A stretch of 64,000 nt of DNA from Bacillus gaemokensis (GTDB taxonomy: Bacteria > Bacillota > Bacilli > Bacillales > Bacillaceae_G). Position 1 is the first letter of the stretch; each line of letters begins with the position of its first letter. The notes beneath the pieces are model-generated. The model searched no databases. It was not told where the DNA came from and saw only the letters and a list, made by a program, of their open reading frames with translations. Where the stretch lies: positions 84,357-148,356 of the forward strand of contig NZ_LTAQ01000001.1 in the NCBI RefSeq assembly GCF_001590835.1, given 5' to 3'. The position numbers and the translations under genes are program-made. Positions 1-14,250 of this stretch are shown here, piece by piece.

Positions 1-1
1 A

Positions 2-746: not shown

Positions 747-775
747 AAAGAGCACTGTTCAAAGGTGCTCTTTTC
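747..775 (+). terminator. Rho-independent terminator
   Basis: Stem AAAGAGCAC (747-755) with GTGCTCTTT (765-773), nine-base loop, followed by a short T run. Confidence 0.7.
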
Positions 776-873
776 TGTATGGAGATTTTTAATCAAATGA
801 AATTTTTGTTATTTTGTAACGAAAATAAACTTTAAGATATAACGTTATGAGTATAAAGCATTTTAATTTTTCT

Positions 874-903
874 AAAGAGCACTTATTTAGTGCTCTTTTT
901 TAT
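874..903 (+). terminator. Rho-independent terminator
   Basis: Stem AAAGAGCACT (874-883) with AGTGCTCTTT, five-base loop, then a six-T run. It would end transcripts from the putative promoter at 814-843. Confidence 0.75.
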
Positions 904-1027
904 GTGAAATTTAGATACCAAATAAAGTTTTTATACAATAAGACTTTATACCATTCTGTCCAATCATCCTTTGTACTTTTTAGATAATATATACAGACAA
1001 ATAAAGACAAGGGGATGAAATACTACG

Positions 1028-1519: not shown

Positions 1520-1531
1520 ATAAAATCAAAC

Positions 1532-1564
1532 AAAGGAACTCTTAATATATAGGGTTCCTTTTCT
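1532..1564 (+). terminator. Rho-independent terminator of the Ena-like gene
   Basis: Stem AAAGGAAC / GTTCCTTT with the loop between 1540 and 1553, followed by TTTTCTGTT; 12 bases after the stop of the gene at 1028-1519. Confidence 0.8.
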
Positions 1565-1648
1565 GTTCCCCACTATCATCCAATCATTCTCAATTTTCAT
1601 ATTTATTCATCTTCTATTCATAATTCCCCTACAAAATAGCGTTTTTGT

Positions 1649-1768
1649 TTAAATTCCCTTATTCACCCAGTAAATAATACTTATAATAACGATGTAATAC
1701 ATCCAAAATTCTTTTGTTTTAGCTGGTTCGATATAGTAATGTTTTATAAAAGCAATAAACCTTTTCAT
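1649..1768 (-). CDS. Small membrane protein, 39 residues
   Basis: ATG at 1768 overlaps the TAA of the preceding gene (TAATG), so translation is probably coupled. The product has a basic start (MKRFIAFIKHYY) and a hydrophobic stretch at about residues 22-35 (FWMYYIVIISIIYW) that could cross the membrane once. It is the last gene of the minus-strand block before the convergent Ena-like gene. Function unknown; phage holin-like or regulatory roles are possible but unsupported. Confidence 0.5.
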   Translation of the reverse strand: MKRFIAFIKHYYIEPAKTKEFWMYYIVIISIIYWVNKGI

Positions 1769-1926
1769 TACTTATATCCCAAAATTACCCTTACATGTTG
1801 TATTAACTGCTCACGACCCATCTTTGTATAACCTTTTATTTTATTATGTCTACAAACTGATTTGAGTTGTTTTAATGGCCACTCTTCCACTGGTGGAATG
1901 TTAATAGTGATGGTTTCTTCACTCAT
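1768..1926 (-). CDS. Small protein with SAP / Rho-N-like helical domain
   Basis: 52 residues starting MSEETITINIPPVEEW. A strong ribosome binding site (GGAGGG) precedes the ATG at 1926. The segment from about residue 15 to 48 (PLKQLKSVCRHNKIKGYTKM then GREQLIQHV) has the helix-turn-helix-extended pattern of SAP or Rho-N-terminal domains, which bind nucleic acid. A longer frame reaches 2019 but has no start signal there. It is coupled to the next gene by a TAATG overlap. Likely a phage small DNA- or RNA-binding protein. Confidence 0.6.
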   Translation of the reverse strand: MSEETITINIPPVEEWPLKQLKSVCRHNKIKGYTKMGREQLIQHVRVILGYK

Positions 1927-1960
1927 CTTTGTTCCCTCCAAAATAAGGATTTTGTTTAGT

Positions 1961-2053
1961 TTAGCTTTCAGAATGGATCTGAATGCCACCTTCTTTTTCG
2001 ATTTGTTCCCAAAGTTCATCCAAAGTCATTTCCTCAACTGGTTTCTTTTTCAT
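1961..2053 (-). CDS. Very small acidic phage-type protein, 30 residues
   Basis: ATG at 2053 follows AGGGAG with about 8 bases spacing. The 30-residue product (MKKKPVEEMTLDELWEQIEK then EGG...) is charged and probably helical. It lies in the same direction and 34 bases before the SAP-like gene. Function unknown; the start signal is the main support. Confidence 0.4.
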   Translation of the reverse strand: MKKKPVEEMTLDELWEQIEKEGGIQIHSES

Positions 2054-2171
2054 TTCTCTCATTCTCCCTTTCTATTCAAATAATTCTTTTTCACATTCTT
2101 TTCACGTTTTCTTCACACATATAGAGAAGTAGTCATGTTACACTTACACTTGAAATACGATATTCTTTTCA

Positions 2172-2197
2172 GTAGGCCCCTACTTCGAGTAAGGGCC
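2172..2197. terminator. Hairpin between phage genes, possible terminator
   Basis: An imperfect inverted repeat, TAGGCCC with GGGCCTTA flanking TAC/GTA, sits between the gene ending at 2229 and the next minus-strand gene. There is no strong T run on either side, so it may be a processing or attenuation hairpin. Confidence 0.35.
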
Positions 2198-2228
2198 TTA
2201 CTCATTTAAAATAACTATTTTGTTTAAA

Positions 2229-2864
2229 TCAGCTGACTGCTGCAGTTTCTTCTTTCTGCTGAGATTCTTTATTTAACTCTTGTCCCATCTTCATTAACAG
2301 ATCTCGGAAATGAGTAAAATCTCCTCTATTGTCATAACCAGCGGAATACGTATAAATTCTCGATTTCCCTAGATTATGAGATTGATATTTTTGATAGTGT
2401 TTAGCTTCTTCTAGGATGAAAAAGAACGCTACGTTTTCCCATTCTTTTTCTACCCAAGCCATATAAAACGTCTCAATACCATAATGTGCAAAATAATCAT
2501 CAAAACTCGCAATGAATCTTTCTTCTCCATCTACTCCAACTACACGATTGTATTCCAAATCGTCAAATGGTTTTATTTCAACTGGGCATTCTTTCTCTAT
2601 CCACTCATAATGTTCCCTAACAGCTTCAGTTTCATCGTCATTCCAAGACTCACGATCTTCATCTACACAAAACTTTAAATGATCTGGATCAAAATAATCT
2701 GAAATATCTTCGCTGTATGGAATAAAGCGGTCTCTTTTCTTCTGAACAACATGAAAGGCATCACATGTATGTCTGTTATCATCCGCACCTGGATATTGTT
2801 TTTCACTAAATAACTTTAAAAACTCAGCCTGTTTTTCTGTTAATTCAACTGTTACCTTTGTCAT
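2229..2864 (-). CDS. Conserved phage-type hypothetical protein, acidic, 211 residues
   Basis: A soluble acidic protein without signal peptide or membrane segment. It begins MTKVTVELTEKQAEFLKLF, then has many aromatic residues and Asp/Glu clusters (about 35-130). It ends in a low-complexity QQKEETAAVS tail. A GGGGAATGAGAG box precedes the ATG at 2864. I recall similar proteins from Bacillus and Listeria phage early regions but know of no function. It sits downstream of the replication genes in the same direction. Confidence 0.6.
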   Translation of the reverse strand: MTKVTVELTEKQAEFLKLFSEKQYPGADDNRHTCDAFHVVQKKRDRFIPYSEDISDYFDPDHLKFCVDEDRESWNDDETEAVREHYEWIEKECPVEIKPFDDLEYNRVVGVDGEERFIASFDDYFAHYGIETFYMAWVEKEWENVAFFFILEEAKHYQKYQSHNLGKSRIYTYSAGYDNRGDFTHFRDLLMKMGQELNKESQQKEETAAVS

Positions 2865-2901
2865 CTCTCATTCCCCATTTCTTAATAAAATTCAAATTGT
2901 A

Positions 2902-3093
2902 TTAAATTAATTGTGTTTTCCGTTCATCTACACGAGTTACTTTTCCATTCTTATATACAAATGACTGTTCACCATGACCGCTTGTTGGTGGTTCTATCTG
3001 ATGAACTTGTCCATCTTTCACGACATAAATCATATTTTCAGCTAAAGAAATTTCAGCTTTCATTTCTGCAATACTTTCTCTAATGATTGTCAC
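2902..3093 (-). CDS. DUF3954 / XtrA-like small phage protein
   Basis: 63 residues from a GTG at 3093, chosen because GGGAG lies 8 bases upstream; an ATG at 3108 would contain that site within the coding sequence. The product has the recognisable core ENMIYVVKDGQVHQIEPP then SGHGEQSF and NGKVTRV, matching DUF3954 proteins of Bacillus phages, related to XtrA of PBSX-type prophages. These are predicted compact beta proteins of unknown role, usually found in the early operon after the replication genes, as here. Confidence 0.65.
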   Translation of the reverse strand: MTIIRESIAEMKAEISLAENMIYVVKDGQVHQIEPPTSGHGEQSFVYKNGKVTRVDERKTQLI

Positions 3094-3169
3094 CGGAACC
3101 ACTCCCATATGTGTTATAATTACTTTGTCGAATAATTATGTCGGGAGCAATCTCGGCTTTTTTATTTGG

Positions 3170-3532
3170 CTATAAATATTGCACAACATTTTCTGGAAAA
3201 AATGACTGTTCCATTGATAAATGAAGTCGTATCGGAATTGGATCTTTATTATCTCTTGCTTTTTTACAAAGTTTCTCAGCGTCTTCCCAATCAAAATGCT
3301 TGTCCTCCACTCGTTTATAACGCCAAATTCCAATCGTGTAATCTTCAAATAGTTCATAACGATCATCAGGTGCTGTCGTTGGCTTCAATTCATCGATTGC
3401 TTTTGCCTGACGTGGCACTTGGACAACTACGTCAGCAAAACGTAATTGTGAATTTAAACGATGAACATGGGCTTTCTTAGGGTCAAATGATACAACTGGT
3501 TCAACATCAAATATTGTCAACTGCTTTGGCAT
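3170..3532 (-). CDS. Phage-type hypothetical protein, 120 residues
   Basis: ATG at 3532 is preceded by GGAGGG at 9 bases. Its first 26 bases overlap the end of the preceding gene, typical of a tight phage operon. The protein starts MPKQLTIFDVEPVVSFDP and is mixed alpha/beta by composition, with basic and acidic patches and no membrane segment. No family recognised. Its position just after the helicase gene suggests an accessory role in the element's replication module, but nothing in the sequence proves it. Confidence 0.6.
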   Translation of the reverse strand: MPKQLTIFDVEPVVSFDPKKAHVHRLNSQLRFADVVVQVPRQAKAIDELKPTTAPDDRYELFEDYTIGIWRYKRVEDKHFDWEDAEKLCKKARDNKDPIPIRLHLSMEQSFFPENVVQYL

Positions 3533-3698
3533 TGTTCTTTCCCTCCAATACCTGCAAACCTGCTTTTAAAATCCCTTCAAGCCGCGTTAAAGTTAATTGA
3601 TCCAATGTTCGCCCATTTATTTCAGCTAATCCTAAACCTAGTAATTTACGAATGATAAATAGTCTTCTGCGTTCAACTTCTTGTCGTAGCAACATCAT
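3507..3698 (-). CDS. FbpA-like small basic phage protein
   Basis: 63 residues. The stretch LLRQEVERRRLFIIRKLLGL then LDQLTLTRLEGILK resembles the short 'Fur-regulated basic protein' (FbpA) family, which is common in Bacillus phages as well as in the Fur regulon. Its ATG overlaps the helicase stop (ATGATG at 3698-3693), so translation is coupled. In phages the function is unknown. The resemblance is to a short family and is only moderately secure. Confidence 0.55.
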   Translation of the reverse strand: MMLLRQEVERRRLFIIRKLLGLGLAEINGRTLDQLTLTRLEGILKAGLQVLEGKNNAKAVDNI

Positions 3699-5026
3699 TG
3701 CACCTCCTGTCTAGGTTGATCATTAAACCTACGCTCTAAATTAACAAACTTACTAAACTCTTTAACCAAAGCTAGTTCTACACTTCCTACAGGTCCGTTT
3801 CTTTGCTTGGCAATTATAATTTCAATCATATTTTTGTTTGGCGTTTCCCTATCGTAATAATCCTCACGATATAAGAGTGTGATAATGTCTGCATCCTGTT
3901 CAATTTGTCCTGTTTCACGTAAGTCTGATGGCATTGGTCGTTTATCTTGTCTGCTCTCTACCGCACGACTAAGTTGCGATAAAGCAACTACACACACGCC
4001 TAATTTTCTAGCCATTAATTTCAATTTACGACTAATCTCGCTTAATTCTTGCATCCTATTTCCTTTGTGCTTTGGATCACCTGTAATAAGCTGCAAATAA
4101 TCAATCATGACTAATACCTTTTTGCCTGGGTGCTTACGTTTGAGCTTTCTTGTTTTGCTATAGATTTCTTGCATTGTCATACCAGCATCATCGTAAATCT
4201 CAAGAGGTAATTTATTAATGATTCCCATAGCTTTTGAAGCCTTATTCCAATCATCTAAGTTAAATGATTTCTTTGGGTTTTTCATTTTCATCGCGTCCAC
4301 GTTTCCAACGCTAGAAACCATTCGTTTGAGTAATTGTTTGTTGCTCATTTCAAGCGAAAATATGGCTACTGCTGTATCTGTTTCAGCTGCATGATATGAA
4401 ATATTAAGCGCAAATGCTGTTTTTCCCACCGACGGACGAGCACCAACAATAATTAAATCTCCCTCTTGAAAACCAGAAGTCATATTGTTCAATTCTGTAT
4501 ATCCAGTGTTAATTCCAGTTAAATCACCAACATCTAATTGCATTTCCTTGTATAGATCAACTAATGTTCCATTCAAATCAAATTCTTCCGAGTATCCTGT
4601 TTCCTCAATCGCATTCAACTGATCAACCGTGTTACTAATTGCGCTAATATCTTTATCATTTTGGATACGATTGTATAAGTTCCCAGCAACTTCTTGAGCA
4701 TGACGCATTTTCCAAGATTCGATAACTAAACCTTCGTGATATGAAAAGTTCTTTGTTGTAGGAACTGAATCAGCTAGATTAATAAAAAAGTCAATCCCAC
4801 CGATTTGCTGTATAAAAGCCTTATCAAACTTTGCAACAAGTGACACAAGATCTATCGGGTTTTCATCACCATCTAATTCACGCATAGCTTTAAAAATGAC
4901 TTGATGTGTTGGAAGTGCGAATTGATTTTCTTTTAACTGACAATCTTTAATCAAATCTCCTTCCAAGATAATAGCTCCCAAAACACTTTGTTCTGCTTCT
5001 ACATTGCGAATGATTTCTTTACTCAT
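3695..5026 (-). CDS. dnaB: Replicative DNA helicase, DnaB family (phage type)
   Basis: 443 residues, full length for the family. N-terminal DnaB domain at 1-110 (EAEQSVLGAII..., primase/loader interaction). C-terminal RecA-like ATPase from about 160, with Walker A GARPSVGKT at 195-203, MIDYLQL (Walker B region) near 310, and the Q-loop/arginine-finger region ARKLGVCVVALSQLSR. I start at ATG 5026, which overlaps the TGA of the upstream replication gene (ATGA), rather than the GTG at 5035. It unwinds DNA at the fork; a phage copy is normally loaded by the DnaD-like organiser encoded just upstream, which is broken here, so loading may now depend on host DnaD/DnaI or may not occur. Confidence 0.93.
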   Translation of the reverse strand: MSKEIIRNVEAEQSVLGAIILEGDLIKDCQLKENQFALPTHQVIFKAMRELDGDENPIDLVSLVAKFDKAFIQQIGGIDFFINLADSVPTTKNFSYHEGLVIESWKMRHAQEVAGNLYNRIQNDKDISAISNTVDQLNAIEETGYSEEFDLNGTLVDLYKEMQLDVGDLTGINTGYTELNNMTSGFQEGDLIIVGARPSVGKTAFALNISYHAAETDTAVAIFSLEMSNKQLLKRMVSSVGNVDAMKMKNPKKSFNLDDWNKASKAMGIINKLPLEIYDDAGMTMQEIYSKTRKLKRKHPGKKVLVMIDYLQLITGDPKHKGNRMQELSEISRKLKLMARKLGVCVVALSQLSRAVESRQDKRPMPSDLRETGQIEQDADIITLLYREDYYDRETPNKNMIEIIIAKQRNGPVGSVELALVKEFSKFVNLERRFNDQPRQEVQ

Positions 5027-5971
5027 TGCGCCCACCCATTATTCTGTAAAAACACTTGAAGTTCTTCTTCAGTAGGAATACTTTCTTTCCAAGATTCTTG
5101 TTGGTTTAATACTTGCTTAGTCGATTTAGATAAACCTTTTTGTTGGTAAGCTGGCTGTTGTTGTACCTTCACCGTTCGCTTAGCACGAAACTCTTTATCA
5201 GCTGCATCAACATCAGCTACTGTTTTCAGACCTTTAAGATGCCAATCTCGTAAAATGGTATTTACGTAAGACATGTTTCTAGTATTTTTTTCTAAAGCAA
5301 TCTCCATCGCCTTAACAACAAGTTCTGCATTTAAGTCATCTTCCCAAGCTTGAATACCTTCTGCGATAAAAGGAGTAATAAGTCCGAAATTTTGTTCGTA
5401 AAAAGAAATTGGATTAACTTCAACAACATCCGCACATTCTTCTTGTTGTTCTTTTTCTTTTTCTTTTTCTTTTTCTTTTTCTTTTTCTTTTTCTTCTTCT
5501 TTTTCTTCTTCCTTACAAGGGTCTTCGAAGCCCCTTCAAACGGACTGATAAATACTCCCTAATACGAGAAATTTTAAAGTCTTGTTGTTCTTCTAATTGC
5601 AAACAAGTTTCATAAAAATCAACTAAAAAATCTTGATCTTTCACAGATTGGATTTCTTTTAAAACACACTTTTCAATGTTTACATTTTTAATCGGATTGA
5701 ACTTTAACCAGTTAATTAAAAATAATTCTTTTGTTTTTTGGTTATAGTTAATTTTTCCGTACTCAGCAAAACGCTCTAATAGCTTCATAACAGTTTCGCG
5801 GTTATATCCTGTATCTGTTTCAATAATGCGAAGTGGAAGCTCATAAATGCCTGATTGAGACGTTTTACTGTTTGTCATTAATTACAAGTAAAAATACTTT
5901 TCCTCCGGTGTAAGATCTAAAACAAATGAATCCTGCCAAAATGAAACATGTACTGGTCTATAAACTGCCAT
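5023..5971 (-). pseudogene. Broken phage replisome organiser (DnaD-like), nonsense plus frameshift
   Basis: ATG at 5971 with GGGAGG 8 bases upstream starts MAVYRPVHVSFWQDSFV then LTPEEKYFYLY-LMTNSKTSQ, the N-terminus of phage replisome organisers. An in-frame TAA at 5882-5884 sits where the family has a Tyr codon (TAT). The frame then runs from 5878 to a stop at 5513. The C-terminal DnaD/DnaB_2 domain (EIALEKNTRNMSYVNTILRD, then WHLKGLKTV) continues in another frame to 5023. Deleting one G from a run of four (plus strand CCCC, 5531-5534) would join the frames through a Lys/Glu linker. So two separate lesions are needed to explain it, unless the G run is a sequencing error or a programmed shift. 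The protein would bind the element's origin and load the helicase. Products of re-initiation at 5878 and in the 3' frame are possible but would be split domains. Confidence 0.8.
5451..5492. repeat. Hexanucleotide repeat (CTTTTT)x7 coding a Lys-Glu linker
   Basis: Seven exact copies of a 6-bp unit, with degenerate units up to 5512. On the minus strand it reads (AAAGAA)n, giving Lys-Glu repeats between the two domains of the replisome organiser. Whole-unit changes keep the frame, so length can vary without loss of function. Confidence 0.9.
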
Positions 5972-5972
5972 A

Positions 5973-6149
5973 TTATTCATCCTCCCGTTTACATATCGCA
6001 AATCCGTTTTCTATACGTAACAAGCGATAATTCTTGTATCCTGTTGTTAAATATTGTTTTACTAAGTAATTTAGGTGCTGCTCTGATGTCGCTTGCTGAA
6101 ATATCTTAGGATTCAGCAACACTCTATGTAATGATTTGTCTAAAAGCAT
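5973..6149 (-). CDS. Small phage-type hypothetical protein, 58 residues
   Basis: I choose the ATG at 6149, which has GGAG 8 bases upstream; a GTG at 6158 would include that site. The product starts MLLDKSLHRVLLNPKIFQQA and ends in a basic segment YRLLRIENGFAICKREDE. Its last codons contain the ribosome binding site of the replisome organiser gene, so the two are in one transcript. No family recognised. Confidence 0.55.
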   Translation of the reverse strand: MLLDKSLHRVLLNPKIFQQATSEQHLNYLVKQYLTTGYKNYRLLRIENGFAICKREDE

Positions 6150-6162
6150 ACAACACACTCCA

Positions 6163-6191
6163 TTGTTATATCGCTTTCGACTTGGTATAAT
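6163..6191 (+). promoter_or_regulatory. Strong vegetative-type promoter facing against the operon
   Basis: TTGTTA (6163-6168), exactly 17 bases, TATAAT (6186-6191), with TG one base before the -10 box (extended -10). It points to the plus strand while all neighbouring genes are on the minus strand. Confidence 0.7.
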
Positions 6192-6197
6192 TAACCT

Positions 6198-6256
6198 AAC
6201 TTAATTTTTGAAAGCTATTGATCTATCACTCTGCCAAGTGATAGATTTTTTATTTT
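6198..6256 (+). ncRNA. Candidate small RNA of about 55-60 nt
   Basis: Downstream of the promoter at 6163-6191 there is no reading frame. A perfect 10-bp stem (ATCTATCACT / AGTGATAGAT, 6221-6230 and 6237-6246) is followed by TTTTTTATTTT. This makes a complete promoter-terminator unit. The end overlaps the 3' end of the convergent gene at 6250-6540, so the RNA would be antisense to its last codon and trailer. Function unknown. Confidence 0.5.
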
Positions 6257-6540
6257 CTACGTATTACTAAGGAGGCATTAACTCCTTTTACTTTTACTCT
6301 TAAATCTTTAATCACTACACGATAACTCATCGATGCCTCATGTTCTTCTTTTGTATCACGAAGCATTTTAAATTCTTTCATACATCGCTCCAGTTCTTCT
6401 TCCCAGCGATTTGATTCTTCGGCAGATTTTGCATTAAACATGTTATGAATGCATGCAATCATACAGTTATGAAGTTTATTCGCAAATGAATAGTCCCCTG
6501 GAAGAACTAGATCATGAAGACGATCGTATTTATGTGTCAT
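6250..6540 (-). CDS. Phage-type hypothetical protein, 96 residues
   Basis: ATG at 6540 follows AAGGAGGCGTAATTC, a strong ribosome binding site. The protein starts MTHKYDRLHDLVLPGDYSF, has a charged helical middle (about 40-70) and a basic C-terminus (VKVKGVNASLVIRRK). No membrane segment and no family recognised. It lies in the early minus-strand block of the element. Confidence 0.55.
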   Translation of the reverse strand: MTHKYDRLHDLVLPGDYSFANKLHNCMIACIHNMFNAKSAEESNRWEEELERCMKEFKMLRDTKEEHEASMSYRVVIKDLRVKVKGVNASLVIRRK

Positions 6541-6656
6541 GAATTACGCCTCCTTCCTATTTGAGTTGATGCTGTACGCATCGTTACAACCAGAAAGTCG
6601 TTTTGTAGGGGTACGAGGAACAATTCCTTTCTGGTCATAACGACAAGCACAGTGGC

Positions 6657-6686
6657 TTGTCCAAATGATTAATAAAATGTTATAAT
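6657..6686 (+). promoter_or_regulatory. Putative plus-strand promoter within the minus-strand block
   Basis: TTGTCC (6657-6662), 18-base spacer, TATAAT (6681-6686) with the extended -10 form TGTTATAAT. It faces the end of the gene at 6720-6941. Confidence 0.5.
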
Positions 6687-6692
6687 TGCTTT

Positions 6693-6740
6693 ATCAAATT
6701 GTTTCAGAGCTACTGTTGTCTAGGCGGTAGCTTTTTCTTT
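6693..6740 (+). ncRNA. Candidate small RNA of about 45-50 nt
   Basis: A short non-coding stretch follows the promoter at 6657-6686 and ends in a stem (AGCTACTG pairing with CGGTAGCT, one T-G wobble) and TTTTTCTTTT. The terminator overlaps the last codons of the convergent gene at 6720. Same architecture as the unit at 6163-6256. It could instead be only a terminator-like palindrome at the gene end. Confidence 0.4.
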
Positions 6741-6941
6741 TGCCCATTTATGTTTTAATGTAAATGATGCTTCAATAATTTTGATTCGGATTCCCACTAA
6801 CTTCTTCTCTTGCTTTAACTCCACGGATTTTTCATCATCATTAAATGTTTTAGCTATTTTTATTTCACCAGTTAACTTGGCATCATAACGAATTAGTTCC
6901 TTATACTCTCCTAAGCTTGGATTCTTGTAATCTACTGTCAT
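6720..6941 (-). CDS. Phage-type hypothetical protein, 73 residues
   Basis: ATG at 6941 follows AGGAGGAAGTGTAA, a strong start signal. The product begins MTVDYKNPSLGEYKELIRYD, and the rest is rich in Lys and Glu with alternating beta-like hydrophobics (LVGIRIKIIEASFTL). Soluble; no family recognised. The gene lies 14 bases after the end of the HTH gene at 6956-7543 and is probably co-transcribed with it. Confidence 0.55.
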   Translation of the reverse strand: MTVDYKNPSLGEYKELIRYDAKLTGEIKIAKTFNDDEKSVELKQEKKLVGIRIKIIEASFTLKHKWAKEKATA

Positions 6942-6955
6942 TTACACTTCCTCCT

Positions 6956-7543
6956 TTACAAAACTTTTGTTAAAGCCATTAAGCTATCTACCGATTGAAT
7001 AATAACGTTTTCCGACATAGCCTTTTGTAACCAGCTTCTTTGTATTTGCTCCATAATGCCAAAATGCACTTTTTCTAAAGCTTGTACTACACATTGCGTG
7101 GCTTGGATTGTATCGAAAATTTCCTTTGCATGAACTGCGTATTCATGTTTCCTCTTTTCATCCAGTTGCCATGATCTTGTTGTAACTTGCAAGTTCATAA
7201 TTTCCTTTGCTGCCACAATCCCCTCTTCAGCTTGTTTAATGTAGTTCATCAATTGTAAATTCACATCTTGAGTTAAACGTGGATCTGTAGGCGGTAAACC
7301 AACACCATAAATATGCTTAATCGCTTGTTGATTTAACTTCGCTCCCGTGGCATGACACCAATCCATTGCAAGCTCAAACTCTGGTTTAGAAAGTCCTGAT
7401 TCAATACGAGTTAATCGTTCATGTGTAATACCAAGGTACTTAGATAGTCCTTTCTTAGTTTTCAAATGAACATCGTCACAACATTCTCTAGCATTCTGTA
7501 ACAATTCCCCTATTGCTGAATTGCAGTATATGCTTGTTCCCAT
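6956..7543 (-). CDS. Phage HTH (Xre-type) regulator, 195 residues
   Basis: The N-terminal part (about 10-65) has a helix-turn-helix of Xre type: IGELLQNARECC, TKKGLSKYLGITHERLTRIE (recognition-helix region) and SGLSKPEFELAMDWC. The C-terminal 120 residues form a helical domain with no recognised family. A GGAGGCGAACAAAT site precedes the ATG at 7543. In Bacillus and Listeria prophages proteins of this size and layout lie between the Cro-like gene and the replication genes, as here, and are thought to control or assist early functions. DNA target unknown. Confidence 0.65.
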   Translation of the reverse strand: MGTSIYCNSAIGELLQNARECCDDVHLKTKKGLSKYLGITHERLTRIESGLSKPEFELAMDWCHATGAKLNQQAIKHIYGVGLPPTDPRLTQDVNLQLMNYIKQAEEGIVAAKEIMNLQVTTRSWQLDEKRKHEYAVHAKEIFDTIQATQCVVQALEKVHFGIMEQIQRSWLQKAMSENVIIQSVDSLMALTKVL

Positions 7544-7633
7544 ATTTGTTCGCCTCCATATTAAGTTTTTAAATGGTTACAATGAATTTAGTACATACAT
7601 AACTTGTCTATTTTTTATGTAAAAAGAGAGGAG

Positions 7634-7882
7634 CTATTCCTCAACGTTTTCTTTCACTTGCATTTCTTTGATGATGGCCCAACCAGCCTCGTAATATGCT
7701 TGAAGGATTTTATCAATCTCCTTTTGCGGTTTAGGTTCAGGAGCCACAACGTAGACTTTCGTTTTTCCAAATTCATAAGTCGCTGCATATTCTTCTTGTT
7801 GGCTCATGGTGTCACCTCTTGAAGTGCTTTTTATATGTTTATGCTGTTGATCTATTGGTACTGCCATTTGAAGTACTGACAT
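7634..7882 (-). CDS. Small phage-type protein with two possible starts
   Basis: Two in-frame ATGs have good ribosome binding sites: 7882 (GGAGGTGAGAAA, 82 residues, MSVLQMAVPIDQQ...) and 7807 (AAGAGGTGACACC, 57 residues, MSQQEEYAATYEFGKTKVYV). The conserved-looking part is the shorter form, with KVYVVAPEPKPQKEIDKILQ and YYEAGWAII. The longer start is listed because its site is the stronger. The upstream start lies 15 bases after an operator copy (7898-7912). Function unknown; similar proteins occur beside phage repressors. Confidence 0.5.
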   Translation of the reverse strand: MSVLQMAVPIDQQHKHIKSTSRGDTMSQQEEYAATYEFGKTKVYVVAPEPKPQKEIDKILQAYYEAGWAIIKEMQVKENVEE

Positions 7883-7897
7883 TTTCTCACCTCCATA

Positions 7898-7912
7898 GAA
7901 ACATTTCGTTTC
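7898..7912. promoter_or_regulatory. Phage repressor operator copy 3
   Basis: GAAACATTTCGTTTC: inverted repeat GAAAC-N5-GTTTC, identical to the copy at 8125-8139. It lies between the Cro-like gene stop (7917) and the next gene's start (7882), so it could control a separate promoter for the downstream early genes. Confidence 0.7.
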
Positions 7913-7916
7913 CTTT

Positions 7917-8108
7917 TTAATCAAAAAAAAGATCATCAATTGTAGTTTTATAAAAATTAGCTATTCTTTTGGCTAATTCTAATGAAGGTGTCCTATCGCC
8001 TCGTTCAATTGCTCCTAACATTTGAGGAGTAATTTTCAACTTCTTTGCTAAGACTATTCTCGATTGACCACTTCTAAACTCGATCATTTTATTTCTTTTT
8101 TTATCCAC
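7917..8108 (-). CDS. Cro-like Xre-family regulator
   Basis: 63 residues forming a single helix-turn-helix domain (SRIVLAKKLKITPQMLGAIE then RGDRTPSLELAKRIANFY and DDLFFD at the end). GTG start at 8108, with GGGGGTG 6 bases upstream. It is divergent from the ImmR-type repressor at 8225 and separated from it by two operators, the standard cro/cI arrangement. It probably competes with the repressor for the GAAAC-N5-GTTTC sites and favours early transcription. Confidence 0.8.
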   Translation of the reverse strand: MDKKRNKMIEFRSGQSRIVLAKKLKITPQMLGAIERGDRTPSLELAKRIANFYKTTIDDLFFD

Positions 8109-8124
8109 TAGTTCACCCCCTAAA

Positions 8125-8139
8125 GAAACATTTCGTTTC
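8125..8139. promoter_or_regulatory. Phage repressor operator copy 1
   Basis: GAAACATTTCGTTTC, directly beside the TATAAG -10 box (minus strand, 8145-8140) of the Cro-like gene. Confidence 0.75.
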
Positions 8140-8158
8140 CTTATACCTCTAATATAGA

Positions 8159-8173
8159 GAAACTAAACGTTTC
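8159..8173. promoter_or_regulatory. Phage repressor operator copy 2
   Basis: GAAACTAAACGTTTC, centre 34 bp from copy 1. It abuts a TATAAT box (8174-8179, plus strand) for the repressor gene and covers the -35 region of the minus-strand promoter, so one protein bound here could act on both directions. Confidence 0.75.
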
Positions 8174-8224
8174 TATAATTAAGAAAAAAAGCACCTATTC
8201 TTATTTAGAAAGAGGGAAGAATTT

Positions 8225-8659
8225 ATGCTTGGAAAAAAGATTTCAGAACTTAGGAAAAAACAAAAACTAAGTCAATATGAGCTTGCTGAACGATTGGGCT
8301 TTTCAAGAGGAAAATTAGCTAATTATGAGCAAGGTCAGCGTGAACCAGATTATGATACCTTAAAGAAAATCGCAGATTTTTTTGAAGTATCAACAGATTA
8401 TTTATTAGATAGGACACAAAAAAAAGAAATGGTATCTAATGAACCATCTAATTTATCTATTAAAGAAGAACGTGATATTGCCAAGGACTTGGAAAAAACT
8501 TTAGAAGATCTAGAGAATAGTGAGGATGCCCTTATGTTCGATGGTGAACCTATGGATGAGCATACAAAGGAAATGATTCGTATCTCTCTGGAAAATTCTA
8601 TGCGCATGGCAAAACAACTTGCCAAGCAAAAATTCACTCCAAACAAGTATAAGAAATAA
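8225..8659 (+). CDS. ImmR-type phage repressor (Xre family)
   Basis: 144 residues. The N-terminal HTH_3 domain is at 5-60 (ISELRKKQKLSQYELAERLG, SRGKLANYEQGQREPDYDTL, then ADFFEVSTDYLL). An acidic linker follows, then a C-terminal helical region (about 85-140) as in ImmR of ICEBs1 and phi105-type repressors. AGAGGGAAGAATTT precedes the ATG. The ImmA-type protease gene starts 15 bases after its stop, so this is a repressor / anti-repressor-protease pair. It most likely binds the three GAAAC-N5-GTTTC operators and keeps early genes off; the protease would cleave it on induction. Confidence 0.87.
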   Translation: MLGKKISELRKKQKLSQYELAERLGFSRGKLANYEQGQREPDYDTLKKIADFFEVSTDYLLDRTQKKEMVSNEPSNLSIKEERDIAKDLEKTLEDLENSEDALMFDGEPMDEHTKEMIRISLENSMRMAKQLAKQKFTPNKYKK

Positions 8660-8674
8660 TGAATGGAGCGAAAA

Positions 8675-9103
8675 ATGGACATTAAACAATACGCACTCAA
8701 AATCGCAGAAAAACACGGAACTACAAACCCATTTGAAATTGCTAGACGAAAAAATATTATTGTGTTGTTTGAAGACCTTGGGAATACTCTTGGTTTTTAC
8801 AACACCTATAAACGCTTTAAATTCATTCATATCAATAATCAAATTGATGAAATAATACAACGATTTGTTTGTGCACACGAATTAGGACATGCTTTACTTC
8901 ACCCTAAATCAAATACCCCCTTCTTGCGTAATCAAACATTCTTTTCAGTAGATCGATTAGAAATTGAAGCGAATACTTTTGCTGTGGAATTATTGCTTAC
9001 TGATGAAATAGTTTCTGAATATAAAAATACCAATCTATCTATTCAAGAGGTTGCGGAAATCCATGGGATTCCAAGAGGATTTGCTCGTTTAAAAACGTAT
9101 TAA
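8675..9103 (+). CDS. ImmA/IrrE-family metallopeptidase
   Basis: 142 residues from the ATG at 8675, chosen for TGGAG 6 bases upstream rather than the ATG at 8663. The zinc motif HELGH is at 68-72, followed by a downstream Glu in EIEANTFAVELLL, which fits the third zinc ligand of this family. ImmA cleaves the ImmR repressor after activation and so triggers excision and early transcription in ICEBs1-like elements. In a sporulation-excised element it may link stress induction to mobilisation, separate from the sporulation route. Confidence 0.88.
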   Translation: MDIKQYALKIAEKHGTTNPFEIARRKNIIVLFEDLGNTLGFYNTYKRFKFIHINNQIDEIIQRFVCAHELGHALLHPKSNTPFLRNQTFFSVDRLEIEANTFAVELLLTDEIVSEYKNTNLSIQEVAEIHGIPRGFARLKTY

Positions 9104-9132
9104 TATAAATTTATAGGTTAGGAGTTACATAG

Positions 9133-9858
9133 ATGAAAATCTTTTTCTCATTTTTATTCGTAATAGCGATTATTGCTACATTCGTTTTATTAATCACATC
9201 ATTAGTATTTCGTTTTAAAAAGAAAACGAACACTTCGAAATATTTCAAGTTTACTGGTATAGCCTTTGCTTTATCTATCATTTCGCTAATTATAGTTAAC
9301 ATGAATATGACACCACAAGAAAAACAAGAGATTCTTGCTAAACAGCAAGCTGAAGAAAAGCAAAAAACCGAAGAGAAACAAAAAGCTAAAGAACAAAAGG
9401 AAGCTGAAGAAAAGCAAAAAGAGTTTGTATCCTATGCTCAAAACATCAGAGGCGGAAACTTTATTAAAGATATGAAGCTTAACAATAATGAAGCTGAAAT
9501 TACATTCCATGATTCATTTGTATCTTATAAATCAGCTAATCCTACTAGTACAAATACAGAAGAACAATATAAACAATATTTTTCAACTGGAGATGCTATT
9601 GAGAAAATGTCTGTAAGTGAACCTGCTAGATTACTAAGACAATTCCCTAATTTAAATACCGTAAAAATGACTCTTCCATTCGATGGGAAAACATATAGTA
9701 CTAGTTTGGATAGAAAATCTTTGAATTCATATCTTGGATTTAAAATTGAAGATTTAAAAGTTGAAGATCAGTCTTGGAGTAAAAAGTTTAATAATCCATA
9801 CGTATATGATAAGAAAAAACGTATGGATTTCTTTGAGAAATTCGTTACGACCTACTAA
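9133..9858 (+). CDS. Membrane-anchored protein with coiled-coil linker, unknown function
   Basis: 241 residues. Two hydrophobic segments at about 2-26 and 38-58 (IAFALSIISLIIVNM) anchor it in the membrane. A Lys/Glu/Gln-rich coiled coil follows at about 62-100 (QQAEEKQKTEEKQKAKEQ...). A globular C-terminal domain (about 100-241) of mixed composition is probably on the outer face if both segments cross. TTAGGAG precedes the ATG by about 10 bases. It lies 29 bases after the ImmA gene and 25 before another membrane gene, in the cargo position between immunity genes and recombinase. Superinfection exclusion is a possible role (inference from position only). Confidence 0.65.
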   Translation: MKIFFSFLFVIAIIATFVLLITSLVFRFKKKTNTSKYFKFTGIAFALSIISLIIVNMNMTPQEKQEILAKQQAEEKQKTEEKQKAKEQKEAEEKQKEFVSYAQNIRGGNFIKDMKLNNNEAEITFHDSFVSYKSANPTSTNTEEQYKQYFSTGDAIEKMSVSEPARLLRQFPNLNTVKMTLPFDGKTYSTSLDRKSLNSYLGFKIEDLKVEDQSWSKKFNNPYVYDKKKRMDFFEKFVTTY

Positions 9859-9883
9859 AATAAAAAAGGAAGGAAACGAGAAC

Positions 9884-10696
9884 ATGGATATAAGTTTATT
9901 AAATAATACTGATTTTTTCAAAGCTCTTCCAGCTGTTAATTTATTAATAAATTTATCACTGACTATATTATTTGGTTCAGCTGTTTTTACGTTTAGACAA
10001 TTCTTCTTAGTGACAACAACCACTCATGTAGATCGTCTCTTTCTTGACAGCACGCAACAAAAAAAAATAGACCTTTCTAACTTTTTTGTTGGAGCATTAT
10101 TGATGTGTTATACGTATGGTATTATAAGTACAACTTTCCATTTTAATTCTTATAATACCTTAATGCATAACAAAGATATATTGCGTTTCTTTCTCTTAAC
10201 TTCCTTAGTTATTTTAATTATTATTTATCCTATTTTTAGTACGGTAATTTATAAAAAGTTAAGAAAATGTAATCCTAATAAAATTATAAGAATTAGAAAA
10301 TTAATCAATTACTTAACATTCTTATTCGTTTTACAAGTTTTAAGCGGGGGAATCTTTTGGTCATTTTGTTTTAGTGGTATTGTACTAGATTCAAAAGACT
10401 CACAATTATATTCTATAATTGTGATATTATTCATTATGTTAATTTTCCTACATACTAACTCATTAATGAAAATTCACAGATTATCTCGCCCTAAATACCA
10501 AACAAAAGAAATAACTAAAGAACAATTAAACGCTATTCAAGCCAGTGTACCATTAATCCATATACATATAATTGATGATAAAAGAACTCTATGCATTCAA
10601 GCTGATAAAAAGCTTAAAGATCATTTTTATGTATGTGATTTTTCTTCAGAAATATACCTAGAGTATAAAATACACGAACATTTTACTTTAAATTAA
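9884..10696 (+). CDS. Multi-pass membrane protein, unknown function
   Basis: 270 residues from the ATG at 9884, preceded by AAGGAAGGAAACGAG; an upstream in-frame ATG at 9761 lies inside the previous gene. There are about five hydrophobic segments, near residues 17-38, 63-85, 98-125, 142-165 and 175-195. A hydrophilic tail (about 200-270) is probably cytoplasmic, starting KIHRLSRPKYQTKEI. Codon use is AT-rich. No family recognised. It is the last gene of the repressor-ImmA-membrane unit and is followed by a terminator, so it may be expressed from the lysogenic promoter along with the protein at 9133. Confidence 0.65.
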   Translation: MDISLLNNTDFFKALPAVNLLINLSLTILFGSAVFTFRQFFLVTTTTHVDRLFLDSTQQKKIDLSNFFVGALLMCYTYGIISTTFHFNSYNTLMHNKDILRFFLLTSLVILIIIYPIFSTVIYKKLRKCNPNKIIRIRKLINYLTFLFVLQVLSGGIFWSFCFSGIVLDSKDSQLYSIIVILFIMLIFLHTNSLMKIHRLSRPKYQTKEITKEQLNAIQASVPLIHIHIIDDKRTLCIQADKKLKDHFYVCDFSSEIYLEYKIHEHFTLN

Positions 10697-10712
10697 TCAT
10701 TAACATAGCAAT

Positions 10713-10735
10713 AAAGCTCCTATCCAGGAGCTTTT
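10713..10735 (+). terminator. Rho-independent terminator
   Basis: AAAGCTCCT / AGGAGCTTTT with a short ATCC loop, 16 bases after the membrane gene stop. It separates the repressor unit from the recombinase gene. Confidence 0.85.
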
Positions 10736-10811
10736 CTTATACCGTTAATTCCATTTACTTCTTCTATCTCTCTATTTCTCGTATAATAACTAATAACAAG
10801 GAGGTCTAACT

Positions 10812-12359
10812 ATGAAAACCGCAATCTACCTACGTAAATCCCGTGCGGATCTCGAAGCTGAGGCACGCGGTGAAGGTGAAACATTAGCAAAACATCGCAC
10901 TACCCTACTGAAAATCGCTAAGGAAAAAAATTTAAATGTTCTAGCTATCCGTGAGGAAATCGTTTCTGGTGAGAGTTTAGTTAAACGTCCTGAAATGTTG
11001 GCCTTACTTGAAGAAATTGAAGACAACAAGTATGATATTGTTCTTTGTATGGATATGGACCGTTTAGGTCGTGGTGGTATGAAAGAACAAGGAATCATTT
11101 TAGAGACGTTTAAACGCTCGAATACGAAGATTATGACACCAAGAAAGACTTATGATCTTAATGATGAGTGGGACGAAGAATACAGCGAATTTGAAGCGTT
11201 TATGGCACGTAAAGAATTAAAGATTATTACTCGTCGTATGCAACGTGGTCGTATAGCAAGCGTAGAAGCTGGGAATTACCTTGGTACAAATGCACCGTAC
11301 GGATATGATATCCATCGTTTAAATAAACGAGAACGTACATTAGCTATTAATCCAGAGGAAGCTTCTGTCGTACGCATGATATTTGAATGGTACGCAAATG
11401 AAGATATGGGTGCCTCTGTCATTACGAACAAATTAAATCAACTTGGCTACAAGAGCAAGCTAGGAAACGATTGGAATCCATACAGTGTATTGGATATGTT
11501 AAAAAATAATATTTATATCGGAAAAGTAACGTGGCAAAAAAGAAAAGAAGTGAAACGTCCAGATAGCGTAAAACGTAGCTGCGCGAGACAAGATAAATCG
11601 GATTGGATTATTGCAGATGGAAAACATGAGCCTATTATTTCAGAAAGCTTATACGAAAAAGCACAGGAGAAATTAAATACGAGATATCATGTTCCTTATA
11701 ATACGAATGGATTAAAGAATCCACTAGCTGGGGTCATAAGATGCGGGAAATGCGGATATAGCATGGTGCAACGTTATCCTAACAAACGAAAGTATACAAT
11801 GGACTGTAAACATCGTGGTTGTGACAACAAATCAAGCTATACAGAGTTAATTGAAAAACGTTTACTCGAGGCGTTAAAGGAATGGTATATAAACTACAAA
11901 GCTGATTTCGATAAAAATAATCAAGACAGTCTTTCAAAAGAAAAACAAGTAATACAAATAAATCAAGCTGCTTTACGCAAGCTTGAAAAAGAATTAGTGG
12001 ATGTGCAAAAGCAAAAAAATAATTTGCACGATTTATTAGAACAAGGCGTTTATACTGTTGATATGTTTTTAGAACGCTCTAATGTTGTATCAGATCGTAT
12101 GAATGAAATTACTGCAATGATGGAGAACCTTCAAAAAGAAATTAATAATGAAGTCAAAAAAGAAAAAGTAAAGAAAGATACAATTCCTCAAGTAGAGCAT
12201 GTATTAGATCTGTATTTCAAAACAGATGATCCAAAGAAAAAGAATAGCCTGTTAAAGTCCGTTTTGGAAAAGGCTGTTTACACGAAAGAAAAATGGCAAA
12301 GGCTCGATGATTTCAAGCTTGTGCTTTACCCTAAGCTCCCTAAAGATGGCGACAAATAA
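10812..12359 (+). CDS. Large serine recombinase of the dpaB-intervening element
   Basis: 515 residues. The N-terminal resolvase/invertase domain is at 1-145 with the nucleophile Ser10 in YLRKS and the DRLGR motif near 83-87. The 'recombinase' domain follows (about 165-290). A zinc ribbon comes next, with Cys311, Cys314, Cys332 and Cys337, then a coiled coil (about 370-455). This is the layout of large serine integrases such as SprA of SP-beta. AAGGAGG lies 8 bases before the ATG. The gene stops 20 bases from the end of the dpaB fragment, next to the attachment site. Role: cuts and joins the two att sites to excise the element and restore dpaB. A small directionality factor is normally needed; I could not identify one in the window. 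Expression is likely tied to sporulation, but no clear sigma-E or sigma-K promoter can be assigned by eye. Confidence 0.92.
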   Translation: MKTAIYLRKSRADLEAEARGEGETLAKHRTTLLKIAKEKNLNVLAIREEIVSGESLVKRPEMLALLEEIEDNKYDIVLCMDMDRLGRGGMKEQGIILETFKRSNTKIMTPRKTYDLNDEWDEEYSEFEAFMARKELKIITRRMQRGRIASVEAGNYLGTNAPYGYDIHRLNKRERTLAINPEEASVVRMIFEWYANEDMGASVITNKLNQLGYKSKLGNDWNPYSVLDMLKNNIYIGKVTWQKRKEVKRPDSVKRSCARQDKSDWIIADGKHEPIISESLYEKAQEKLNTRYHVPYNTNGLKNPLAGVIRCGKCGYSMVQRYPNKRKYTMDCKHRGCDNKSSYTELIEKRLLEALKEWYINYKADFDKNNQDSLSKEKQVIQINQAALRKLEKELVDVQKQKNNLHDLLEQGVYTVDMFLERSNVVSDRMNEITAMMENLQKEINNEVKKEKVKKDTIPQVEHVLDLYFKTDDPKKKNSLLKSVLEKAVYTKEKWQRLDDFKLVLYPKLPKDGDK

Positions 12360-12379
12360 GCGTTTGCTTTTTGTCGTCA

Positions 12380-12817
12380 TCATGTTGGTGTAATTAGGTT
12401 TACACCATTAAGACCAAGAGCATCATTTGTTGAAACAGCTAACACAACAGGTTTCCCATTTCGAAGGGTTGCCTTCGCTGCCATTAATACCGGAGAATCT
12501 GTCATTGCGTTCGCAAATTTGCTCATTGAATTTCCTGTTAAAGGGGCAATCACCATGCAATCTAACGGGATTTTCGGACCAAGTGGTTCGGCTCCTACAA
12601 TAGAATTGATAACCTTATTTCCTGTTATCCCTTCAATTTTTTCAATCCACTCCGCCCCTTCACCAAACCTAGTATTTGTTGTTTGGACAGTATATGAGAC
12701 AACTGGCAGTACTTCTGCCCCTTCTTCAATCAATTTCTCTAAATGTGGCATAACTTCCTCATACGTACAATGTGAACCTGTAAATCCAAAGCCAATTCGC
12801 TTTCCTTTCAAGCTCAT
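12380..12817 (-). CDS. dpaB: Dipicolinate synthase subunit B, 5' part only (interrupted by element)
   Basis: DpaB (SpoVFB) is a flavoprotein-fold subunit that works with DpaA to make dipicolinic acid in the mother cell. The normal protein is about 200 residues. Here 141 native residues, starting MSLKGKRIGFGFTGSHCTYE and ending GLNGVNL, are followed by Ile-Thr-Pro-Thr and a TGA, all from the element. The missing part, about 55-60 residues, must lie beyond the other end of the element. The start overlaps the dpaA stop (ATGA at 12817-12814). There is no frameshift or nonsense codon in the native part, so the gene looks preserved and repairable by excision, not decayed. Downstream genes expected in the same operon (asd, dapG, dapA) are separated from dpaA by the element. 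Confidence 0.93.
   Translation of the reverse strand: MSLKGKRIGFGFTGSHCTYEEVMPHLEKLIEEGAEVLPVVSYTVQTTNTRFGEGAEWIEKIEGITGNKVINSIVGAEPLGPKIPLDCMVIAPLTGNSMSKFANAMTDSPVLMAAKATLRNGKPVVLAVSTNDALGLNGVNLITPT
12387..12406. other. Attachment (att) site at the element/dpaB junction
   Basis: GGTGTAA (12387-12393) and TTACACC (12400-12406) form an inverted repeat with a 6-bp centre TTAGGT. On the dpaB strand the first half is dpaB coding sequence (the GVNL codons) and the second half is element sequence. A crossover in a short palindromic context between dpaB and element DNA is what a serine recombinase site should look like. The true crossover is probably in or near the central six bases. Confidence 0.65.
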
Positions 12818-13716
12818 TTTCCATTCTCCTCTCTTGCAATTATATCTGCCGTTAATAGCTGAGAAAGAACATTTGCTAAAATTTGTCCTGCTGTTTTTGG
12901 GGCAACAATTCCCGGAAGACCAGGTGCTAGCAACGCTTTAACTCCTCTCTTCTCCGCATAACGAAAATCTGTACCACCCGGCTTAGAAGCTAGATCAATA
13001 ATTAACGTGTGCGCTGGCATCTGCGAAATAATACTTGCTGTTACAACGAGGTGTGGAATTGTATTAATGACAATGTCAATATCACTTACTTCTTTCTCGA
13101 TATCTTGCATATAAAAAGGAGAGAACATCATTTCCGAAATACGAGCAATATGTTCCGAACGCCTCGCTCCTACCTTGACATGCGCCCCTAATGATTGAAA
13201 AGCTCTAGCCACACTCATCCCGGTTCTACCAAATCCTAAAACCATTACATTCGATCCATGAATTGTATAATCCGTATGTTGAATGACCATCATTATTGTT
13301 CCCTCTACTGTTGGAATAGAATTGTAGATTGCCACATCATCACGGTCAAATAATCTCACAAGTTTTCGATTTGTAGTGGACACAATATGTTCTAAATAAG
13401 GGGTACCAATACCTGAATATATAGTGAAATTTTCTGGAGTTTTTTCAATCTGTTCTTTCGTAACTGTAACCTTTTCATTCGAAAAAATAGTATCTACTTC
13501 ACCTTTCGCATTTGTTCCTGCTACCGGTAAAATAATCGCATCCAAAGAAGTGAAATCTAGATCTTGCATACTTTCTTTTGCTGCCCCTGTAAAACCGTGA
13601 TCTAATTGATCAAATCCTATTAATGAAAGTTTCGCATCAAGTTCAACTAACTTGCGAATCACTTCTAGCTGCCTTGCATCTCCTCCTATGACAGCAATGT
13701 GCATCTCAGTCAACAT
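12814..13716 (-). CDS. dpaA: Dipicolinate synthase subunit A
   Basis: 300 residues, the full family length. N-terminal MLTEMHIAVIGGDARQLEVI and a central NAD(P)-binding Rossmann segment VMVLGFGRTGMSVARAF (about 155-175); C-terminal APGLPGIVAPKTAGQI is characteristic. With DpaB it oxidises the dihydrodipicolinate-pathway intermediate to dipicolinic acid, which is then moved into the forespore. AGGTG lies about 10 bases before the ATG at 13716. Expected to be mother-cell (sigma-K) controlled by analogy with B. subtilis; I see no unambiguous sigma-K promoter. The gene itself is intact. Confidence 0.96.
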   Translation of the reverse strand: MLTEMHIAVIGGDARQLEVIRKLVELDAKLSLIGFDQLDHGFTGAAKESMQDLDFTSLDAIILPVAGTNAKGEVDTIFSNEKVTVTKEQIEKTPENFTIYSGIGTPYLEHIVSTTNRKLVRLFDRDDVAIYNSIPTVEGTIMMVIQHTDYTIHGSNVMVLGFGRTGMSVARAFQSLGAHVKVGARRSEHIARISEMMFSPFYMQDIEKEVSDIDIVINTIPHLVVTASIISQMPAHTLIIDLASKPGGTDFRYAEKRGVKALLAPGLPGIVAPKTAGQILANVLSQLLTADIIAREENGK

Positions 13717-14209: not shown

Positions 14210-14250
14210 TTTTATGAAGTCCATTTTTATATAAAGGGGAGGGAAATCTC

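What the first reader, a model, noticed from the sequence alone, without database searches (positions are those of the whole stretch)
10812..12817. dpaB (spoVFB) is split by a recombinase-bearing element: a probable sporulation-excised intervening sequence
The sequence shows a clean dpaB reading frame for 141 codons, then four foreign codons and a stop, and within 20 bp the end of a full-length large serine recombinase (Ser10, zinc Cys311/314/332/337). dpaA upstream is intact and the dpaB part has no decay. DpaB is needed for dipicolinic acid and spore heat resistance, so a sporulating host must excise the element in the mother cell. Known parallels are skin in sigK, SP-beta in spsM and, as I recall, a spoVFB-intervening element (vfbin) in B. 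weihenstephanensis KBAB4. Whether this copy is the same element or a different phage at the same site is open.
Basis: partly seen in the sequence, partly recalled or inferred. Interest (0 to 1): 0.92.

Follow-up and report, generated by a model that had tools for sequence, protein, structure and literature searches.

The report
Prophage splitting a spore-resistance gene
In this Bacillus genome a prophage sits inside dpaB, a gene needed to make the spore compound dipicolinic acid, and comparison with relatives suggests that the phage cuts itself out during sporulation and points to the small phage protein that probably triggers the cut.

Summary
In detail: dpaB matches its family for 142 residues, then stops after foreign codons, 20 bp from a full-length large serine recombinase, with intact dpaA beside it. 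This is the known vfbin kind of element (spoVFB-intervening, B. weihenstephanensis KBAB4); KBAB4's copy was not found in the collections, so identity is untested. The window starts inside the prophage, so its own dpaB 3' half is out of view.

Relatives supply both ends. Eleven Gottfriedia-type genomes break dpaB at the same place beside a 55-57% identical recombinase. Both junctions were read in nine: mostly ~2.8-kb mini-elements with a repeated core and inverted arms. Both dpaB halves there are under strong purifying selection, most simply explained by a joined product.

New lead: a 57-aa protein (window 7634-7807, -) accompanies the recombinase in 38 of 38 B. cereus-group loci and 11 of 11 Gottfriedia-type elements. 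Over 397 Bacillales genomes it occurs in 18 of 18 with this recombinase (51-58% identity) and 1 of 379 others, always divergent from it; three of these relatives abut a broken sigK. I predict that it is the missing directionality factor. Excision itself was not testable here.

The parts
1..12392 (.). Right-hand part of the dpaB-intervening prophage as far as the window holds it (the element continues left of base 1)
   Evidence: IMG/VR record IMGVR_UViG_2724679201_000002 is identical over 812-12359 and 1-922; phage helicase, repressor and integrase families
10812..12359 (+). Large serine recombinase, 515 aa, catalytic Ser10
   Evidence: Pfam PF00239, PF07508, PF13408; phrog_95 integrase, E 4e-110; SPbeta YokA in PDB, E 1.5e-43
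12374..12397 (.). Recombination junction: element arm (about 12374-12392, length by analogy with the Gottfriedia-type arms) and core attag (12393-12397) where phage and dpaB meet
   Evidence: Junction conserved in L103 and L114; four records end at this core
12380..12817 (-). 5' part of dpaB (spoVFB), residues 1-142, then foreign codons and stop
   Evidence: TIGR02852, 250 bits; alignment with 80 relatives
12814..13716 (-). dpaA (spoVFA), intact, 300 aa
   Evidence: ORF list; 71-72% identical dpaA lies next to dpaB in the Gottfriedia-type loci
7634..7882 (-). Small protein, proposed recombination directionality factor: 57 aa from the internal ATG at 7807, 82 aa from the upstream ATG at 7882; which start is used is not known
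   Evidence: Present in 38 of 38 B. cereus-group provirus loci and 11 of 11 Gottfriedia-type dpaB elements; co-occurrence with the recombinase
8225..8659 (+). Phage repressor-like HTH protein
   Evidence: PF12844/PF01381
8663..9103 (+). ImmA/IrrE-type metallopeptidase beside the repressor
   Evidence: PF06114
7917..8108 (-). Cro-like regulator just upstream of the small protein
   Evidence: phrog_8 and similar regulator families
3695..5035 (-). Phage DnaB-like replicative helicase
   Evidence: phrog_19, E 8e-105

Best explanation
The window holds the recombinase end of a prophage that integrated into dpaB at codon ~142 by large-serine-integrase recombination. SHOWN: the split, the recombinase, phage early genes, the same junction in independent strains. 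STRONGLY INFERRED (about 0.9): the other end of the element carries the last ~57 codons of dpaB, and in the mother cell of a sporulating host the recombinase rejoins the two parts, while the forespore keeps the prophage. INFERRED (about 0.65): the direction of the reaction is set by the 57-aa protein at 7634-7807 acting as recombination directionality factor, made when the phage is induced and in the mother cell. The element is of the vfbin kind.
For: Domain and residue tests of the recombinase. dpaB family match ends where the phage begins. Related elements (recombinase 55-57% identical) split dpaB at the same place in 11 genomes, L122 and L130-L139; the 3' half was found beyond the element in 10 of the 11, the eleventh (G013) lying at a contig end. 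In nine loci both junctions were read: core AATTTAATG on both sides and arms that are inverted repeats (17 of 19 bases in the L122-type pair), the layout of an integrase attP. Selection: dN/dS 0.013 for the dpaB 5' half (11 genomes), 0.052 for the 3' half (8), 0.096 recombinase (10), 0.31 small protein (11). Recombinase distances follow host dpaA (Spearman 0.89, 45 pairs of 10 genomes), so the element looks inherited with the host. Small protein: 18 of 18 genomes with the recombinase at E<=1e-150, 1 of 379 others; Fisher 3e-30, or 2e-17 with the ten Gottfriedia-type genomes counted once; on the same contig and divergent in all 18 (coordinates); no match in 50,697 phage records. Four of 38 provirus records end at the att core, as expected if reads from joined and unjoined DNA were mixed. 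Sporulation-specific expression of the vfbin recombinase is stated in PMC5595907 (passage).
Against: The dpaB 3' half was not seen for this strain or in the B. cereus-group records searched. No excision, transcript or joined product was measured. In Gottfriedia-type loci an internal start before the 3' half was not excluded (L079 has a mechanical ORF, 13039-13395, that runs into it). The E<=1e-150 cut was set after seeing the gap, and that call scored only three candidates per genome. The small protein has no recognised family and no structural match; co-occurrence shows partnership, not its nature. One genome (G145) has the small protein without the recombinase. A sporulation promoter could not be assigned in the window: a TATAAT-like box is kept before the recombinase, which fits vegetative expression as well. 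The record ends at the core may have other causes; only one of the four (L111/G051, 33,931 bp) was matched to a contig of the same length.
Confidence: 0.85

Rival explanations
1. The prophage is an ordinary lysogen that simply inactivates dpaB. The strain either sporulates poorly or makes spores without dipicolinic acid, and there is no regulated excision.
For: The dpaB 3' half was not seen in this strain. In the twin record no ORF scanned between the small terminase and the endolysin was assigned to large terminase, portal or capsid, so the phage may be decaying.
Against: The dpaB 5' part keeps its protein sequence (135 of 142 residues against L103 at 351 of 426 bases). In Gottfriedia-type genomes both halves are under strong purifying selection. 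The recombinase and the small protein are kept in mini-elements that hold little else.
Confidence: 0.08
2. The dpaB junction is an assembly artefact, a chimeric contig of prophage and chromosome.
For: The twin record is a scaffold with an unmerged 99-bp overlap and an N at its join.
Against: That join is at window base 1, 12 kb from the dpaB junction. The dpaB junction recurs in L103 and L114, and four more records end at it; 11 other genomes break dpaB at the same place.
Confidence: 0.01
3. The true directionality factor is another gene, and the 57-aa protein is a different obligate partner of the recombinase, for example a repressor or stabiliser of it.
For: The protein has no recognised fold. 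The Gottfriedia-type mini-elements also keep ORF178 under selection (dN/dS 0.26, 10 genomes), and it could be the factor there.
Against: ORF178 has no homologue among ORFs of the window and L081-L121 by profile search, so it is unlikely to be a shared factor. Size (57-65 aa) fits SprB (58 aa) and Skr (64 aa).
Confidence: 0.3

Closest known systems
vfbin, the spoVFB-intervening element of B. weihenstephanensis KBAB4 (Abe et al. 2013; seen only through passages of citing papers)
   Same: Same target gene, prophage-like, B. cereus group, recombinase-driven
   Different: No sequence of that name was returned, so identity is untested. A 2019 paper (passages) lists split genes including 'spoIVFB' (probably meaning spoVFB) and says that some rdf genes had not been identified; a candidate is proposed here
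SPbeta in spsM with SprA/SprB (B. subtilis; PMC4191935 passages)
   Same: Serine recombinase plus a 58-aa factor in a prophage; the factor is needed for excision and excision restores the gene in sporulation
   Different: Recombinase only distantly related (28.6% to SPbeta-like phages); SprB was not compared letter by letter
skin in sigK with SpoIVCA/Skr (B. subtilis; PMC6957869 passages)
   Same: Defective prophage splitting a mother-cell gene; small factor (64 aa) near the recombinase
   Different: Other gene. Relatives of the window's recombinase abut a sigK 5' half in three genomes (L203, L207, L209)
gin in gerE with GirC/GirX (B. cereus ATCC10987; PMC5595907 abstract and passages)
   Same: Serine recombinase plus extra factor, sporulation-time joining, same species group
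   Different: gin carries no phage genes and three recombinases; this element is a prophage with one large serine recombinase seen in the part held

Membership tests
Sporulation gene-intervening element (vfbin kind) | Lies inside the coding region of a mother-cell sporulation gene | tested here: met
   dpaB interrupted at residue 142. That dpaB is a mother-cell gene comes from the literature (passages)
Sporulation gene-intervening element (vfbin kind) | Both parts of the gene flank the element | tested here: inconclusive
   5' part seen; 3' part would lie left of the contig start. Both parts seen in 10 of 11 Gottfriedia-type relatives
Sporulation gene-intervening element (vfbin kind) | Carries its own site-specific recombinase | tested here: met
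   Stop codon 20 bp from the dpaB remnant
Sporulation gene-intervening element (vfbin kind) | Excised in the mother cell, restoring the gene | not testable with these tools
   Only indirect: selection on both halves in relatives, records ending at the core
Identity with vfbin of KBAB4 | Sequence match to the KBAB4 element | not testable with these tools
   No listed row or 75 is named KBAB4; IMG/VR rows and G handles bear no organism names
Large serine recombinase | Resolvase, recombinase and zinc-ribbon domains with catalytic serine | tested here: met
Recombination directionality factor (57-aa protein) | Found with its recombinase | tested here: met
   18 of 18 genomes with the recombinase at E<=1e-150; 1 of 379 others
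Recombination directionality factor (57-aa protein) | Switches the recombinase to excision | not testable with these tools
   Needs a recombination assay
Recombination directionality factor (57-aa protein) | Shared fold with a solved factor such as SprB | tested here: inconclusive
   Model pLDDT 75.7, hairpin plus helix; no significant match

The most novel reading that the evidence does not exclude
The 57-aa protein is the directionality factor of a whole clade of recombinases that repeatedly split mother-cell genes (dpaB, sigK), and in Gottfriedia-type bacteria the dpaB element has been stripped to a domesticated ~2.8-kb developmental switch (recombinase, factor, one extra gene) kept by selection across species.
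Probability: 0.6. Interest if true: 0.75.

Novelty: new member of a known kind. Interest (0 to 1): 0.62.

Why it matters
It makes an open point testable: the partner protein that lets the dpaB recombinase cut the phage out. It also suggests that dpaB is a repeated target: besides the vfbin-type site, two other positions (near residues 86-89 and near 131) carry different elements. And it offers a natural minimal system, about 3 kb, for studying how bacteria keep removable DNA inside an important developmental gene.

Tried and rejected
Own genome: not held; relatives of the window not drawn. Left end of this prophage: the dpaB 3' peptide of L001 was not found in viral contigs nor in 37 provirus records (that tool warns that an empty answer without a positive control shows nothing); a degenerate DNA pattern found one record, an element in a distant host (G060); att-arm-like sequence was not found in 14 fetched record ends. 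ORF178 as a general factor: rejected, no homologue among ORFs of the window and L081-L121. Fold match of the small protein: none; a missing match does not exclude a shared fold. Ena identity for window 1028-1519: no Pfam family. Mother-cell promoter for the window's recombinase or small gene: could not be assigned. Gottfriedia with prophage: 0 papers hold both words. spoVFB with prophage: 7 papers, four of them on such elements (passages seen), three not opened. dpaB with prophage and sporulation: 2 papers, neither opened. yhbH: in PMC9341999 the passages only list YhbH among prophage-encoded proteins. Paper PMC5499854 is not held.

Full report
WHAT IS THERE. The recombinase has all three domains of a large serine recombinase, Ser10 and the four named cysteines. 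The dpaB part matches TIGR02852 up to residue 142 and then stops; 79 of the 80 relatives aligned continue to 195-202 aa, and the other, L079, is split too. dpaA is complete. Left of the recombinase come phage early genes: repressor, ImmA-like peptidase, Cro-like regulator, DnaB-like helicase.

SOURCE AND LIMITS. The own assembly is not held. An IMG/VR record (G001) is identical over the sequence it shares with the window. That record shows that window base 1 is a contig start: 99 bases are repeated unmerged at the join, followed by an N. So the far end of the prophage, with the expected dpaB 3' half, is out of view. In the record's left part I found endolysin, holin, a lipase (with weak matches to tail-fibre families), a small terminase and an HNH gene, but no ORF assigned to large terminase, portal or capsid; of the 17 ORFs listed there nine were scanned against PHROGs (eight, one). 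The element may be a defective prophage, or the scaffold may have gaps. By best matches of the small protein the host is a B. cereus-group member; the species was not determined. None of the 80 titled loci is a B. cereus-group species; the genomes of later calls are unnamed.

THE SAME SITE ELSEWHERE. 38 IMG/VR loci (L081-L118) carry an 89-100% identical recombinase. Of these 38, 32 stop at the recombinase stop codon, four stop at the junction core (37-38 bases after it), L114 runs 56 and L103 1,869 bases beyond; the last two show dpaB. In the GTDB family of G007, 12 of 19 genomes have a related recombinase at E<=1e-80. Eleven of the 12 (55-57% identity) sit in dpaB at the same place; the twelfth, G015 (36-38%), sits beside a truncated yhbH. 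Of the seven without it, G004, G005, G006, G008 and G011 have full-length dpaB, as has G015 (for the first five, for G015); G009 and G010 were not seen there. Contig lengths link G013, G022 and G018 to Gottfriedia acidiceleris, Gottfriedia sp. NPDC056225 and Bacillus sp. EAC; L079, whose contig is that of G007, is Bacillus sp. AFS041924.

MINI-ELEMENTS. Both junctions were read in nine loci: in eight dpaB is parted by about 2.8 kb, in the ninth (L142) by 3.0 kb. The genes seen are the recombinase, a divergent small gene (58-65 aa) and ORF178; for L079 only ORFs of 80 aa or more were listed besides. L141/L148 (G018) is a larger version with further genes between. The core is repeated at both junctions and the arms are inverted repeats, 17 of 19 bases. 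dN/dS is far below 1 for both halves of dpaB. The 3' half is cut off from dpaB's own start, so selection on it is most simply explained by a joined product; an internal start was not excluded. Recombinase distances follow host dpaA distances. In the recombinase tree (quick method, 152 rows, window and six of the 38 B. cereus-group loci) the Gottfriedia-type and B. cereus-group dpaB elements fall together with support 92, below the tool's 95 mark, and the three sigK-adjacent elements lie in three separate places.

THE SMALL PROTEIN. A 57-aa protein at window 7634-7807 (-) is found in 38 of 38 B. cereus-group loci and in 11 of 11 Gottfriedia-type elements (37-48% identity), but not in the loci L119 or L143. 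Of the three genes seen in the mini-elements it is, with the recombinase, one of the two also found in the B. cereus-group loci. A search of 5.8 billion proteins gave 71 relatives by sequence and 99 by profile; those with names are mostly B. cereus group and Gottfriedia-type. None was found in 50,697 phage records. I searched 397 Bacillales genomes (the same draw, as far as the listed handles show) for both genes. The recombinase at E<=1e-150 is in 18; the small protein is in 19, namely those 18 and G145. The cut was set after seeing the gap between 7e-163 and 7e-144, and one search scored only three candidates per genome. Nine further genomes have recombinases at 1e-101 to 7e-144 without the small protein. 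Ten of the 18 are Gottfriedia-type dpaB elements; of the other eight, three (L203, L207, L209) end in a sigK 5' half (sigK 3' halves not sought), and five have no target assigned. All 18 pairs are on one contig and divergent, with gaps of 0.1-13.7 kb in the ten computed. Two pairs of rows in the protein lists share species and contig length (Bacillus cytotoxicus P0076/P0204, Anaerobacillus alkalidiazotrophicus P0190/P0213). Known factors are of like size: SprB 58 aa, Skr 64 aa. The model is a hairpin and a helix of middling confidence, without a structural match. In eight of ten Gottfriedia-type loci aligned the small gene is preceded by CATACAAT, in two by CATATAAT; that this resembles a sigma-E -10 box is recalled, not tested.

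OTHER BREAKS IN dpaB. In a census of 397 genomes (order of G007) 381 have dpaB at E<=1e-10; 12 show two pieces: ten Gottfriedia-type genomes, G120 and G160. G120 and G160 break near residues 86-89, beside recombinases 30-31% identical to the window's; their ~21-kb and ~11-kb inserts look mostly non-phage by eye, not by family scan. The IMG/VR record G060 breaks near residue 131 around ~27 kb with a 524-aa recombinase-like ORF beside the 5' half (it matches the G120 and G160 recombinases at 26-27%). The match table was cut, so single-piece matches were not all inspected; eight other weak ones were rechecked, all near full length, one (G241) with two stops inside.

MECHANISM. Integration: recombinase joins phage and dpaB sites. 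Mother cell: recombinase plus directionality factor rejoin dpaB, so dipicolinic acid can be made; the forespore keeps the split gene and hands the prophage on. Steps shown here: the split, the sites in relatives, the selection, the partnership. Steps inferred: mother-cell timing and the role of the small protein. For vfbin itself, sporulation-specific expression and excision are stated in papers seen as passages.

VERDICT. A new member of a known kind, with one new and testable claim (the factor) and one new variant in related genomes (the mini-elements). Whether either is already in print was checked only with the searches; no title or abstract start listed there names either, and the 2013 paper on vfbin itself was not seen.

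Noticed in passing
L143:8810-10012 (-), genome G015: yhbH (sporulation protein, TIGR02877) is cut at profile position 342 of 371 beside a 36-38% related serine recombinase and phage-like genes: a likely yhbH-intervening prophage. The 3' end was not sought.
   Followed up: partly
L203, L207, L209: Three relatives of the window's recombinase end in a sigK 5' half cut at profile position 143-145: likely sigK-splitting elements of this recombinase clade, each with the small protein on the same contig. The sigK 3' halves were not sought.
   Followed up: partly
L167/L168 (G120) and L169 (G160): dpaB split near residue 86-89 by ~21-kb and ~11-kb inserts with 30-31% related recombinases and cargo that looks mostly non-phage.
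   Followed up: partly
L153, L154 (record G060): dpaB of a distant host split near residue 131 by a ~27-kb prophage; both halves lie in one record.
   Followed up: partly
L141:543-4815: The dpaB element of Bacillus sp. EAC carries large surface-protein-like genes (they look like WxL-type proteins; recalled, not tested) as cargo.
   Followed up: no
L121:7027-7922 (overlaps window 1-244) and window 1028-1519: Prophage cargo of unknown role: a DUF7852 protein, and a protein that reminded me of spore appendage (Ena) proteins but matches no Pfam family.
   Followed up: partly
window 14054-14739: Three tandem small ORFs with [12 protein letters not shown] repeats and a hydrophobic tail, near dpaA; likely spore-associated small proteins (recalled).
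   Followed up: no
L199 (G145): A lone copy of the small protein with no related recombinase in the genome at E<=1e-40; possibly a remnant.
   Followed up: partly
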